Assembly: GCF_028502605.1 (NCBI RefSeq)
Contig: NC_079234.1
Location: forward strand, 4,464,001-4,528,000
Length of the DNA: 64,000 bases
Direction: 5' to 3'
DNA from: Trichoderma breve
Lineage: Eukaryota; Ascomycota; Sordariomycetes; Hypocreales; Hypocreaceae
Under the pieces are notes generated by a model, which worked only from the letters and a program-made list of their open reading frames with translations, was not told the origin of the DNA and did no database searches. Made by a program: the position numbers and the translations under genes. This document shows, one piece after another, positions 11,565 to 17,439 of this stretch; position 1 is the stretch's first letter; each line of letters begins with the position of its first letter.

Positions 11565-14500
11565 CTACTCCAACTTGAGCTGCTCAAACTGCTTAATCGT
11601 CTCCTCCAAGCTGTGCTTCTCCTGCTTGGCATCAGCCAATCTCTTGAGGTCTCCCTCCTGGACGGCCGCCGACACCTTCTCCTTGTATCCAGGATCTGCG
11701 AGGAGCTTCTCCTGCTTCTGGATGTTGGTGGTGGTCTTCTCGAGCTTCTTCTGTGCCTTTGTAATTTCGGCATCCATGTCCACCCGGCCCTTGACGTGCA
11801 GGAAGACGGAGGCAGCGGTAGAAACGGGGTAAGCAACGCTACCTAGAGGTCGAGGAGCGTCGGGGCCGACGACCTCCATGGTCTTGACGCTCTTGCCGCT
11901 GAGCGACTTGATCGAAGACACTTCGTTCTTGCAAGTCTTGAGAGACTCTGGGTTGTACGCCTGGATGATGACTATTTTGGATGTCATGTTAGATAATGGA
12001 GCAGGCCGATTTGTTATAGGAATCTACTTACTCTCAGCGTCCTCCTTGATGGCATACTCTGACATGAGCGATCGGGAAGCCTTGGTGCAGTCGAGCACAA
12101 GCTCATAAGCGGCCTCTGACGCCGGGTCGTCAAGAACAGCATCGTAGGTAGGGTACTTGGCAACCATGATGGACTTTGTCTCATCGCTGGGTCTTCGGGG
12201 CATTCTCTGCCACATCTCCTCGGTGATGAAAGGCATGAAGGGGTGGATCATGGTAAGAGCTCCCTCCAGAGCAGTGTACAAAGTCTGGATAGCCGAGTTG
12301 CGCTCCTCCTCAGTGCCATCGCGGATAATGGCCTTTGAGTTTTCAATGTACACGTCACAGAGCTCGTTGTACCAGTAACGGTAAACAATGATTGAGGACT
12401 TTGAGAACTCTCGATCGGCAAGGGCGATGTTGATCTCCTTGGCGGCCTGGTTCATCTTGTGGAGAATCCATCTCTCGGCCAGAGTCTTACCAGGAACGGC
12501 ACCAGTTTTTGAGGGAACAAAGTCCTGGGGCAGACTTCCCAAGACGTACTTGGTTGCTTGGAACTAATGCTGATGTTAGCCGCAAAAGAAAGAGATCAAA
12601 AGATGCTGGATTTTCCATGACGTACAATCTTGTTGCAGAATTTTCGGTAGCCGTGAATACTAATGACGATGTCAGCGGTGTCGGGAGGAATCAACATTGA
12701 GATTTGCTTACATCTTGACTTCCAAGTTAATGTCACCACCACCGGTTGTGGCATTGATCATGGTGAAGCGGAGTGCGTCAGCTCCGCACTCAGGAATGCC
12801 ATCGGGGAAGGCAGTCTTCTGGTACTTGGTGGCCTTCTGGACCTCGCTGGGGTGCAGATTACCCTGAAGAAGCTTCGCATGCAAATCTTCCAGTTTGATA
12901 CCGGCAATGACATCGAGCGGGTCAACGACGTTACCCAGACTCTTGCTCATTTTCCGGCCCTCTGAATCTCTGACGAGACTGTGGCAGTAGACCTCCTTGA
13001 AGGGAACCTGTCCTGTTAGCTTCAAGCTGAGCATGATCATTCTGGCAATCCAGAAGAAGAGAATATCCCAGCCAGTCTCAAGGACGCTCGTAGGGAACAG
13101 CTTTTCAAAGTCAAGTGTCTTCTCAGGCCAGCCCAAAGTGCTGAACGGCCACAGACCAGATGAGAACCAAGCTATACTAGTGTTAGTGCCAAAGTAGTAA
13201 ACAGATGTATGCCGTATATAAACTCACTATCAAGGACATCTTCATCCTGCTCAAGAGTGAAGGTCTTGCCAGGGAAAGCCGCCTGGGCTTTCTTCTCTGC
13301 TTCTTCTCTGGTTCTTCCGGTAAACCAGAGCTTGTCTTCGGGGATGCCCTCAGAGCCACCCTCAATCTTGGCAAAGTATGCAGGGCATCTGTGACCCCAC
13401 CACAGCTGTCGGCTGATACACCAGTCATTGATGTCCTCCAGCCAGCGGAAATAGCTCTTTTCAGCGCTCTCGGGCTGAATCTTAATCTTGCCATCTCGAA
13501 CGGCCTGAAGAGCGGGCGCAGCGAGCTCCTTCATTCTAACCCACCACTGGGGCTTCATGATGGGCTCGATGATGTCCTTGGACTTTTCACACAGAGGAAC
13601 TTTCATGGGGTTGTCCTTCTTGTCCACATACAGCCCCTTCTCCTTCAGAGCATCCTGGATGGAGTATCTGACATCGAAGCGCTTCTGGCCCTTGTATGGC
13701 CCAGCATTCTCGTTCATCAGTCCATCGTCAGTGAGGATATTGATGAATTCCAGCTTGTGCTTCTGGCCAAGTGTGAAATCGTTGGGGTCATGGGCCGGAG
13801 TCAGCTTGACGGCTCCGGTTCCGAATTCCATGTCGACATACTCGTCGGCGATGATGGGCAGCTTGCGACCCGGGATGAATGGGTGGACGGCGTTCTTGCC
13901 AATCAGATGCGTGTATCTCGCGTCCTTGGGGTGAACAGCAATACCAGTATCACCCAGCATGGTTTCAATACGGGTAGTGGCAACCTCGACAGTCTCGTCG
14001 CTACCCTCGATAGGGTACTTGAAGTGAACAATGACACCGAATTCGACCTTCTTATCGTAACCGGGGACATCGAGGAGCGTCCTTCCAGTGAGCTCCTTGT
14101 TCTGGACCTCGAGGTTCGAAAGAGCTGTGTTAAGCTTTGTGCACCAGTTGACAAGTCTGTTGGCACGGTAAATGATGCCCTCCTCGTGAAGCTGAACAAA
14201 AGTTTCGACGACGGCCTTTGTCAAGTTGGGATCCATGGTGAAAGCTGCATATTGTTAGCCCTAAAGAAACAGAACTCCAAACCCTCGCTTGAATTGATAA
14301 TACACACCTTCCCGGCTCCAGTCAAAAGAGCTACCCAAGCTAGTCAAAGCCTTGTTGATACGCTTGTGGTAATCCTCCTTCCACTCCCAGACGGTCTCAA
14401 CGAACTTCTCTCGGCCGAGGTCATGTCTGGTCTGCTGTTTCCGTCTCCAGAGCATGTTCTCAACAACACTCTGAGTAGAGATACCGGCATGGTCGCAACC

Positions 14501-15278
14501 AGGAAGCCACAGAGTAGTCTTGCCTTGCATCCTGTTCCATCGGATCATGAGATCCTGAAGCGAGTCGCCCAGGGCGTGTCCCATGTGCAAGTTACCAGTG
14601 ACATTGGGAGGCGGGTGGACAATGACGAAGCTACCTTCGTCCTTGACGTTTCCATCTGCAGTGAACTCGGGCTTGAAAAACCCCTCCTTCTCCCACCAAG
14701 TATACCATGCGGACTCGACGGCAATGGGGTTGTATGCCTTGAAGTGAGGGTCGTCGAACGATCGGATGCGCTTCTTCTCTCCAACGGGGGTATCTTCGAC
14801 GTACTCGGGTAGCGGCTCCTCCTCTACCTTCTCCTTCTTTGCCTTTTTCTCCTTGACGGGAGCAGCGGCGGCGGCAGCAGCCTTTGCTTTTTTCGCTTCG
14901 AGTTTGGCGGCCTTTTCAGCCTTCTTGCGCTCCTTCTCTACTGAAAGGGTAAGTTAGATAGCAGCTCTTGGGAAATAAGATTGAACGTGGAGAAATTGGG
15001 ATCCCTTACACTCCTTTTCGGACTTTACTTTCGCAGGCCCCTCGGGAGCAGGGACAACGCCAGCATCTTGACCAGAGGCGTGCTCTCCAGGAGCAGCAGA
15101 TTGGGTCGAGTTGGCAATCTCTTGCTTGACCTCGCCGGAGACCTTGGGAGGCGCGGTGTTGGTTTCCTGGATACCCTCAGTCGCCGCGACTATGAACCGT
15201 CCATATTAGTGACAATCTTCAACCGCCTTGTTCTAACAGTAACGTACTGGGATTTCCTCGTCCAGAGTTGGTCGCCAT
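11565..15278 (-). CDS. VAS1: Valyl-tRNA synthetase (cytosolic and probably mitochondrial)
   Basis: This class Ia synthetase charges tRNA-Val. Eight exons are inferred: 15248-15278, 15010-15189, 14308-14940, 13228-14244, 12712-13171, 12626-12659, 12032-12563 and 11565-11971. They sum to 1,098 codons, normal for the family. The order is a Lys/Ala/Glu-rich N-terminal appendix, the HIGH-type motif HMGH in [22 protein letters not shown], the editing domain, the KMSKS motif in [14 protein letters not shown], the anticodon-binding domain, and a C-terminal coiled coil ([19 protein letters not shown]). Exon 6 is only 34 nt. The ATG at 15278 gives the cytosolic form. Upstream, 38 further in-frame codons look like a mitochondrial presequence without an ATG. 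Yeast VAS1 also makes both forms from one gene. Confidence 0.95.
12626..12659 (-). other. 34-nt micro-exon of valyl-tRNA synthetase
   Basis: This micro-exon encodes part of [13 protein letters not shown] between introns of 52 bp (12660-12711) and 62 bp (12564-12625). Both flanking introns have GTAAGC or GTACGT donors and TAG acceptors. Phase is preserved only if the exon is included. Confidence 0.75.
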
Positions 15279-15392
15279 GATTGCACGTGTGGTGGTAAAA
15301 GATCTTGCAGGATAAACTGGCCGCACTCGAAGTGCTCGAGCCGCGAATCTGAACGTCGTGCTGGATGTTCTTCGGGGAAGCCCTAGAGTGAA
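15279..15392 (-). promoter_or_regulatory. Possible non-AUG-initiated mitochondrial presequence of valyl-tRNA synthetase
   Basis: In frame with the VAS1 ATG, 38 codons upstream are open back to a TGA and contain no ATG. The encoded peptide is rich in Arg, Ser, Thr and Ala with no Asp or Glu. It includes TTFRFAARALRVRP and ends ARSFTTTRAI just before the ATG, resembling a matrix-targeting and processing sequence. Tandem ACG codons with A at -3 lie at 15354-15359, 26-27 codons before the ATG. Yeast ALA1 is known to start its mitochondrial form at tandem ACG codons. Use of this start here is inference. Confidence 0.6.
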
Positions 15393-15494
15393 TTGGCCTC
15401 CTCGTCAATCCTAAGCGTCAAAAGTTCACTTTGGAAAAGACCGGCTCTGATTGCGCTATCGGGATCCAGAGTCAAAGTTTCTTGGTCTGAAATT

Positions 15495-15501: not shown

Positions 15502-15812
15502 CTGCCCTTATCAGGTGGGATGTTGAGGGGTGTGGCGGTGCCGCGGGGTTCAGATCGTAATTTGGGTCCAATTTGCGATCAAGCCACAATGAGCGCCACA
15601 GACGCTCTTACATGGGCAAACCAACTTGACTAAGGAATTCCATGTAAACCGACGTTCTTCAGCATCATCATCTTTCCATGAAAACTTCTTCATTTTGGGT
15701 TTTTCCATTTAGTAATGACGCATTCATTATAAAGAACTACTTGAGAATCTGTCTTTAAAGAAATTCAGCTAGCATAATCTTGGCGCATGTTTAGCCTGGC
15801 CTCTTGTATAAA

Positions 15813-17439
15813 ATGATCATCCGGCTATCCCAACAGGCTGCGAGAGGCTTGCTTTCACGGAGAGGCTCATCAGCTTTGCGAAAAGCCTATTCAAGCTCTT
15901 CTGGTAACAGTCAAACCAGATTTACGTATGCTCCGAAAGCGGATGAGAAGGTAAGATATGTTTTTAAAATTTGTGGATATCAATTCGTTAATGGTTCTTA
16001 GATCAACTATGGAGAGCTCTTTGAGAAACTGAGAAGCAAAAAAATCTTGGAAAATGCCAACGGCCACAACGCTGCAGTGCTCCTCGCAACGCCCAGCTTT
16101 TCCAAAGACCTAGAAGATGAAAATCTCATGGGAGATTTTGCTAGATTGATGGCTGGTTCTGCGGACGTGGGGAGATTCCATGTGTTAAGCGCTGTGGTCG
16201 ACCATCTGGCAGCCCCCATAGGTTCACTGAGGCCTCTCCAGGGAGTGTCAGTCCTACGAGGCCAATTGGATGATATGTTGCCGCACCTGTGGCAGCAGAA
16301 TCCTCCAAAGTCCAAAGATGATGCAGATTCAGTGTCTGCTCTCACCTTTAGCCTGGGAGATCCCTCATTAACGCTGCCGCTGGCCAGAACTACATTCCAC
16401 AACAATAGAGCGTCTACACTTTTGCTATCTGAGTTTGATTTGACGCAAAATCCTCCTAAACTCGCTAGCCAAACAGAAAAGCACTCACAATTTGTGAAAG
16501 TCTTACTGGATAACGACCTCAAATCTTTAGCCCAACTCGACACGTGGGCGCCCCTGATGCCGTTGACGCAGCCCCGAACAGTGACCGAGAGCTTCGGTAA
16601 TATCATTCGAGGAATTGAAGTTGACGGAACCACTATTCCCGCGTCTACTGAGCTGGAAGACATTGTAAATGCACTTCATAAACAAAATGCCGAATCTGGA
16701 GTTTTATCTGGGCCTGTTGGAGTCTGGGCAATGGTTACCCCTAACCCAGAGACGTCAGGCGCATTGGAAGAATGGCTTGAAGAAGCCCCCGAGCCAATAT
16801 CGGCCCTGCCAGATGTTGATGATATCAGAGATACTGTAAAAGCCACCGCCCAACATCTCAAACTGCTTTATAGTCATGGCGGCCGTCTGTACAAGATATG
16901 TAAGTGTGAAGCTCGCAAAGATAACATGTTTCTTAAGGCAAAATGTGAGCTGATGATATGAATTAGTGAGCGGCGGCGGCGGCTGGGGAGCCAAGAAGGG
17001 ATTACTATCCCTTGATCCTCAACGAACGCATTTTTCCCTGTCAGAAGAGGAAGAGATGCAGAACTTTATACAGTCAATGAACGGTGGTGGCTTCACTCCT
17101 GAGGGCTCACAGATCCAGTTCTTCATGTCAGCACCGGCTCTTCCAGACGTTACGGAACCCTTTGTCCCTGGTGTTGCGTTTGGCATTGCTGGAGATGTTG
17201 CAGTTCCCAGAGAGCCCGAGCCAATCGAAGGCTTCATCGGACAGCATTTTGGCGCTCTTTCGAACTCGGCTGTCTATCTCTCTGGCCGGGGCCTACCTGG
17301 TGGTAAAGAAACGAAACTCAGCGTCCCACACTCACGAGTATATGGGAGGGAGCCCGAAGGGGAGTTGGGTGTTTGGGGAAACTTGACGTATGAGTTGGCG
17401 GACGTTGGAACAATTGTGTTGGCAGGACTGAAGCACTAA
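15813..17439 (+). CDS. Conserved mitochondrial protein of unknown function
   Basis: Three exons are inferred: 15813-15950, 16002-16899 and 16967-17439 (introns 51 and 67 bp). They give 502 residues. The N-terminus (MIIRLSQQAARGLLSRRGSS, then ALRKAYSSSS) is an Arg/Ser-rich amphipathic presequence, so a mitochondrial location is likely. The middle starts NAAVLLATPSF and includes a VVDHLAAP segment. The C-terminal part begins with a Gly-rich SGGGGWGAKKGLLSLDP motif created across the second splice junction, followed by GVAFGIAGDV and YLSGRGLPGG. The layout vaguely recalls FIST-type sensory domains, but I cannot assign it. It is divergent from VAS1 and converges on the dehydrogenase gene with only about 75 bp between stops. 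Confidence 0.8.

What the first reader, a model, noticed from the sequence alone, without database searches (positions are those of the whole stretch)
15279..15392. Valyl-tRNA synthetase may start its mitochondrial form at tandem ACG codons
Seen: 38 codons upstream of the VAS1 ATG are open in frame, contain no ATG, and encode a peptide with many Arg, Ser and Thr and no Asp or Glu, ending ARSFTTTRAI. Two consecutive ACG codons with A at -3 lie at 15354-15359. Known: yeast VAS1 makes cytosolic and mitochondrial enzymes from one gene using two ATGs, and yeast ALA1 starts its mitochondrial form at tandem ACGs. Inference: this fungus uses a non-AUG start for mitochondrial ValRS, a different solution for the same gene.
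Basis: partly seen in the sequence, partly recalled or inferred. Interest (0 to 1): 0.75.

Follow-up and report, generated by a model that had tools for sequence, protein, structure and literature searches.

The report
Valyl-tRNA synthetase with hidden mitochondrial start
In this Trichoderma-like fungus the valyl-tRNA synthetase gene seems to make its mitochondrial form from a non-standard start signal (ACG ACG) in front of the annotated start, a new example of a trick already known from other fungal genes of this kind.

Summary
Upstream of the ValRS ATG (15278, minus strand) the frame is open for 42 codons (15404-15279), with no ATG, Asp or Glu, and with ACG ACG at 15359-15354 (A at -3 of both). 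Openness alone is chance-level (0.44 of shuffles); no Asp/Glu plus at least 8 Arg is not (0.004 of open shuffles). Best new evidence: the peptide aligns with annotated N-terminal extensions of two Magnaporthales ValRS (own TTFRFAARALRVRP; Gaeumannomyces TTSRLLFRALLVRP; Pyricularia TTSRLLSRALLVRP), scores 50 and 40 against 16-25 for five unrelated leader peptides; 0 of 19,296 six-frame segments match both as well. So this is probably a conserved, translated targeting leader. In the same genome AlaRS, GlyRS and HisRS each carry an upstream ATG with C or T at -3; ValRS has none, and ACG ACG is the only near-cognate placed to include the conserved block. Against the single-gene premise, a second intact ValRS lies on contig C6; its ATG-started form has no targeting leader. 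Rivals are an upstream exon or targeting from the C6 copy. Start-site use is inferred; no transcript or ribosome data were available. The mechanism is of a known kind; I found no report of this gene/codon combination in the papers searched.

The parts
15279..15404 (-). in-frame, ATG-free 5' extension of the ValRS reading frame; proposed mitochondrial leader from the ACG pair onward
   Evidence: peptide similarity to P0066 and P0088; composition
15357..15359 (-). first ACG of the tandem pair, proposed non-AUG start (context CCAGC ACG A)
15354..15356 (-). second ACG of the pair (context GCACG ACG T)
15294..15305 (-). codons R-S-F-T, resembling a fungal presequence cleavage motif (motif recalled, not from a call)
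   Evidence: for the codons; motif counted
15276..15278 (-). ATG of the annotated-type (cytosolic) ValRS, context AATC ATG G
   Evidence: 103 of 120 listed relatives begin at or within one residue of the equivalent motif
15248..15278 (-). ValRS coding exon 1
15010..15189 (-). ValRS coding exon 2
14308..14940 (-). ValRS coding exon 3
13228..14244 (-). ValRS coding exon 4
12712..13171 (-). ValRS coding exon 5
12626..12659 (-). ValRS coding exon 6
12032..12563 (-). ValRS coding exon 7
11565..11971 (-). ValRS coding exon 8 with stop codon
15383..15611 (-). best-looking candidate upstream intron (GTAAGA...CTCTAG, 229 nt) of the rival 'upstream exon' reading; not believed

Best explanation
One gene makes two ValRS proteins. 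Some scanning ribosomes start at the tandem ACG (15359-15354) and make a precursor of about 1124 aa with a 27-residue Arg-rich leader that is imported into mitochondria and probably cut near RSF/TTT. The others pass on to the good-context ATG at 15278 and make the 1097-aa cytosolic enzyme. Shown here: the open frame, no ATG in the unspliced leader, the composition of the leader, its similarity to annotated Magnaporthales extensions, and ATG-led leaders on AlaRS, GlyRS and HisRS of the same genome. Inferred: that the ACG pair is the start, that the precursor is imported, and where it is cut.
For: Leader similarity: scores 50 (P0066) and 40 (P0088), reached by 1 and 7 of 5,000 shuffles of the own leader and by 0 and 3 of 8,698 open shuffled-DNA translations; five other N-terminal leaders of this genome score 16-25 against the three; of 19,296 six-frame 41-mers 0 reach 50 against P0066, 4 reach 40 against P0088, none both. 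Composition: charge +6, no D/E, muH 0.365 and an R-x-F-T motif together in 65 of 55,474 stop-free 27-mers; no D/E with at least 8 Arg in 0.004 of open shuffles. In-frame near-cognates before the ATG are ACG, ACG, GTG (15326) and ATC (15281) only; only the ACG pair precedes the whole conserved block, and it coincides with the Thr-Thr where the similarity to P0088 begins. 334 ATG-free nt upstream. AlaRS, GlyRS and HisRS (3 of 3 examined) have upstream ATGs with C, T, C at -3 and downstream in-frame ATGs with a purine at -3. Tandem ACG is a proven start in yeast ALA1 (PMC2909995, passages).
Against: No transcript, footprint or proteomic data. No DNA of relatives could be had (0 matches), so whether Thr-Thr is ACG ACG in Magnaporthales is unknown; P0066 has its own ATG 10 codons before Thr-Thr, so an AUG start is possible there. 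Only 2 of 120 listed relatives show the leader, since most are annotated from the later ATG. The second ValRS gene could supply mitochondria. Neither ACG has G at +4 (A and T).
Confidence: 0.62

Rival explanations
1. The leader is real, but its start is an ordinary ATG in an upstream exon spliced to it, perhaps only in transcripts from an upstream promoter.
For: Four in-frame joins to an upstream ATG exist, all from donor GTAAGA at 15611; one (acceptor 15361) would give MEFLSQVGLPI before TTFRF. The Pyricularia record P0088 has an unrelated-looking prefix before VTTSRLL that could be an upstream exon.
Against: Candidate introns are 229-295 nt; the 18 introns of the two ValRS genes are 52-132 nt and 17 of 18 have a branch-like site near the acceptor, the 15349 and 15317 acceptors have none, 15361 only one at 44 nt. 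The 15383 acceptor, which has one at 22 nt, gives an acidic N-terminus (DDDAEE) unlike a leader.
Confidence: 0.14
2. The C6 ValRS copy supplies mitochondria and the window gene is cytosolic only; the extension is a relic or untranslated.
For: The C6 gene is intact (1083 aa). Its upstream frame is open for 47 codons without ATG, Asp or Glu and very basic; a 27-mer of it has charge +9 and muH 0.559, matched by 65 of 55,474 window 27-mers.
Against: No ATG-led leader; two out-of-frame ATGs lie inside that stretch (L017 minus 4975 and 5003), which the window leader lacks; its upstream peptide is not similar to the window's (2,619 of 5,000 shuffles as good). It groups with Truncatella and Pleurostoma proteins rather than with the Trichoderma ones listed, so it may be a late or patchy arrival.
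Confidence: 0.13
3. Chance: an untranslated 5' leader that happens to be open and Arg-rich.
For: Open upstream frames are common: 0.44 of shuffles; 11 of 22 long ORFs of the window have at least 38 codons before their first ATG, though many of these are later exons or non-coding frames.
Against: Similarity to the Magnaporthales leaders and the composition.
Confidence: 0.11

Closest known systems
S. cerevisiae ALA1 (AlaRS), tandem ACG(-25)/ACG(-24) (PMC2909995, passages seen)
   Different: Another enzyme. In this genome AlaRS has an upstream ATG and ValRS the ACG pair, the reverse of yeast. Use of the ACG pair is proven in yeast and only inferred here.
S. cerevisiae VAS1 (ValRS), two in-frame AUGs (PMC2909995, passages seen)
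   Same: Same enzyme, one gene for both compartments, leader before the cytosolic ATG.
   Different: Yeast uses an AUG for the long form; none is available here without splicing. This genome also has a second ValRS gene.
DualNCC aaRS genes of Cryptococcus and other fungi, e.g. Cryptococcus LeuRS ACG-AUU, ArgRS AUU (PMC7049704, sections 19-20 read, other passages seen)
   Same: Near-cognate start in good context before a leader, then the cytosolic AUG; which aaRS uses it changes between fungi.
   Different: ValRS in Cryptococcus is DualAUG. The N. crassa ValRS class is in a supplement I could not read.
N. crassa cpc-1 near-cognate N-terminal extensions (PMC5487733, passages seen)
   Same: Conserved near-cognate-led extension in Pezizomycotina, an ACG among the starts.
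   Different: Transcription factor; no targeting leader.
N. crassa cyt-20 ValRS (recalled, Kubelik et al. 1991; not read)
   Same: Sordariomycete ValRS said to serve both compartments.
   Different: Its start arrangement was not seen here; none of the 15 papers listed holds the word cyt-20.

Membership tests
Valyl-tRNA synthetase | valS profile over its curated cut-off | tested here: met
   TIGR00422 1026 bits against 612.1
Dual-localised fungal aaRS with near-cognate upstream start (DualNCC) | In-frame extension without ATG before the cytosolic ATG | tested here: met
Dual-localised fungal aaRS with near-cognate upstream start (DualNCC) | Near-cognate codon in good context ahead of the leader | tested here: met
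   ACG ACG with A at -3 of both; +4 is A and T, not G
Dual-localised fungal aaRS with near-cognate upstream start (DualNCC) | Extension encodes a mitochondrial targeting peptide | tested here: inconclusive
   Composition fits and the peptide resembles two annotated extensions; no trained predictor and no localisation data
Dual-localised fungal aaRS with near-cognate upstream start (DualNCC) | Translation starts at the near-cognate codon | not testable with these tools
   needs ribosome profiling, mutagenesis or N-terminal proteomics
Dual-localised fungal aaRS with near-cognate upstream start (DualNCC) | Single gene serves both compartments | tested here: inconclusive
   A second intact ValRS gene on C6, without ATG-led leader; the six other class Ia genes are IleRS, LeuRS and MetRS by profile
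DualAUG aaRS (yeast VAS1 type) | Upstream in-frame AUG before the leader | tested here: not met
   No in-frame ATG in the 42 codons; no ATG in any frame for 334 nt; only by the unlikely splices

The most novel reading that the evidence does not exclude
A non-AUG-started mitochondrial ValRS leader is old and shared in Sordariomycetes (Hypocreales and Magnaporthales), so annotations that begin at the MATNS ATG miss the mitochondrial isoform across these fungi; relative to budding yeast, ValRS and AlaRS have exchanged their start-codon strategies.
Probability: 0.35. Interest if true: 0.55.

Novelty: new member of a known kind. Interest (0 to 1): 0.42.

Why it matters
If true, it explains how this fungus gets mitochondrial ValRS when the ATG-started products of both its ValRS genes lack a targeting leader, and it shows that the class of start codon used for one aaRS can shift between fungal lineages while the leader peptide persists. 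It also suggests correcting ValRS annotations: 103 of 120 listed relatives are annotated from the cytosolic-type ATG or within one residue of it.

Tried and rejected
Openness of the frame as evidence: rejected, 0.44 of shuffles are open. A second ValRS with an ATG-led leader: looked for and not found; the other six genes behind the PF00133 hits pass the IleRS, LeuRS or MetRS cut-offs. Stops reported in the C6 copy by the six-frame search: explained by introns. Presence of mitochondrial tRNA-Val: could not be checked, no COX1 and so probably no mtDNA in the assembly. Region search with own leader: 49 candidates, none at E <= 10. Region search with the P0088 leader: 6 candidates, only itself at E <= 10, so even P0066 did not reach it. 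Pattern scans for the ValRS start in viral and prokaryote contigs: 0 matches. C6 surroundings as a biosynthetic cluster with a resistance copy: transporter, P450, regulator and UstYa-like genes but no PKS/NRPS-sized ORF in 77 kb, and no literature hit naming ValRS in the 15 listed of 239; left open.

Full report
What is there. The window lies in a 38.5-Mb, 9-contig fungal genome. Its ValRS is closest to Trichoderma proteins: 93% identity to records named T. evansii and T. gracile and 97% to an unnamed assembly protein. The gene runs on the minus strand from ATG 15278 to a stop codon ending at 11565, with 7 introns of 52-69 nt, and encodes 1097 aa over the valS cut-off. Upstream the same frame is open to 15404 and reads RGGQFTLGLPRRTSSTTFRFAARALRVRPVYPARSFTTTRAI before the M. 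ACG ACG encodes the Thr-Thr of STTFRF.

Is it more than chance? An open frame of this length is not: 8,737 of 20,000 dinucleotide-preserving shuffles of the last 41 codons are open. Of those, 209 lack Asp/Glu, 35 lack them and have at least 8 Arg, and 79 hold an in-frame ACG ACG. For the 27 codons from the first ACG the composition is less striking (no D/E 0.109; with at least 6 Arg 0.022). Net charge +6 without acidic residues, muH 0.365 and an R-x-[FYL]-[AST] motif together occur in 65 of 55,474 stop-free 27-mers of the window. The ATG-started N-terminus has charge 0 and muH 0.252. The 334 nt before the ATG hold no ATG; 24 of 5,000 shuffles do, with the caveat that the stretch was delimited by the next ATG.

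Conservation. Of 120 ValRS relatives listed, out of 7,996 scored, 103 begin at a MATNS-like motif or within one residue of it, 13 show no motif in the first 80 residues, and 4 matched the motif further in. Of these four, P0026 is a chance match and P0107 has a 17-residue prefix that I did not compare. The other two, Gaeumannomyces tritici P0066 and Pyricularia oryzae P0088, have long extensions. Own and P0066 share LPxxTxxTTxRxxxRALxVRP; own and P0088 share TTxRxxxRALxVRP. Scores are 50 and 40; shuffles of the own leader reach them in 1 and 7 of 5,000. Five other N-terminal leaders of this genome score 18-25 against own, 18-22 against P0066 and 16-25 against P0088; among 19,296 six-frame 41-mers none reaches 50 against P0066, 4 reach 40 against P0088, none does both. 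I read this as homology of a translated leader across two orders. It rests on two records, and a dedicated search found no third. P0066 has its own ATG 10 codons before Thr-Thr, so an AUG start is possible there.

Other aaRS of this genome. AlaRS (MRTLARSRLQ..., C at -3), GlyRS (MKPIRHLLSS..., T at -3) and HisRS (MKIALAAFRS..., C at -3) each have an upstream ATG with a poor -3 base, a leader, and a downstream in-frame ATG with a purine at -3. This is the weak-AUG pattern described for fungi (PMC7049704). Only these three were examined. ValRS has the ACG pair with A at -3 instead. A near-cognate in good context should leak much as an AUG in poor context does (inference).

Second ValRS. Contig C6 holds an intact second gene (11 introns, 1083 aa), 67% identical to the window's. 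It starts MATNSARENP with no ATG-led leader. In a FastTree of the listed hits over 950 aa it groups with Truncatella P0120 (87%) and Pleurostoma P0103 (76%) with support 1.0, while the window gene groups with the Trichoderma proteins: gain from another lineage, or patchy retention. The list was ranked by similarity to the window gene, so C6-like relatives are under-sampled. Its upstream frame is also open for 47 codons and Arg-rich without an ATG, but holds two out-of-frame ATGs and is not similar to the window's leader. The refuter 'separate mitochondrial ValRS gene' is therefore not met in its plain form, but not excluded.

Upstream exon. Enumerating in-frame joins to an upstream ATG between 15279 and 15812 (introns 45-400 nt, donor matching at least 5 of 6 consensus bases) gave four, all from GTAAGA at 15611, 229-295 nt. 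The 18 introns of the two ValRS genes are 52-132 nt, and 17 have a branch-like site near the acceptor. Of the candidates only acceptor 15383 has one at a usual distance, and that product begins with an acidic, non-targeting sequence.

Literature. PMC7049704 (sections 19 and 20 read whole, other passages seen) describes AUG/near-cognate substitution among fungal aaRS genes, with ValRS DualAUG in Cryptococcus and AlaRS DualAUG in N. crassa; its supplement was not readable here. PMC2909995 (passages) describes the ALA1 tandem ACG and VAS1's two AUGs. PMC5487733 (passages) shows near-cognate N-terminal extensions of cpc-1 conserved in Pezizomycotina. PMC9604717, PMC10576190 and PMC7214817 were seen in passages only and did not bear on the start of Hypocreales ValRS. 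Searches listed no title or abstract opening that reports a non-AUG ValRS in Trichoderma or Hypocreales; most of those papers were not read, and the library holds open-licence papers only.

Verdict. A conserved, AUG-less mitochondrial leader is likely (about 0.75-0.8). The ACG pair as its start is the best single reading (0.62). The kind is known; this enzyme/codon combination, and the swap with AlaRS relative to yeast, look new within what I searched.

Noticed in passing
L017:896-4893 (minus), genome contig C6: Second intact ValRS gene (1083 aa, 67% identical), closest among listed proteins to Truncatella (87%) and Pleurostoma (76%), so perhaps horizontally gained. Neighbours include an MFS transporter, P450, Fungal_trans regulator and a UstYa-like gene: a possible self-resistance copy, without a visible core synthase.
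   Followed up: partly
L017:4894-5034 (minus): The 47 codons before the C6 ValRS ATG are also open, ATG-free in frame, without Asp or Glu and very basic, but contain two out-of-frame ATGs.
   Followed up: partly
L037, L039, L041 (AlaRS, GlyRS, HisRS loci): All three have an upstream in-frame ATG with C or T at -3, a leader-like peptide, and a downstream ATG with a purine at -3: leaky-scanning dual-localisation design.
   Followed up: partly
window 15813-17439 (+): Divergent neighbour begins MIIRLSQQAARGLLSRRGSSALRKAYSSSS, a classic-looking mitochondrial leader; it shares the roughly 530-bp intergenic region with ValRS.
   Followed up: no
protein records P0066 and P0104: Two different ValRS-like proteins (1140 and 1053 aa) carry the name Gaeumannomyces tritici, from different assemblies; extra ValRS copies may be commoner in Sordariomycetes.
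   Followed up: no
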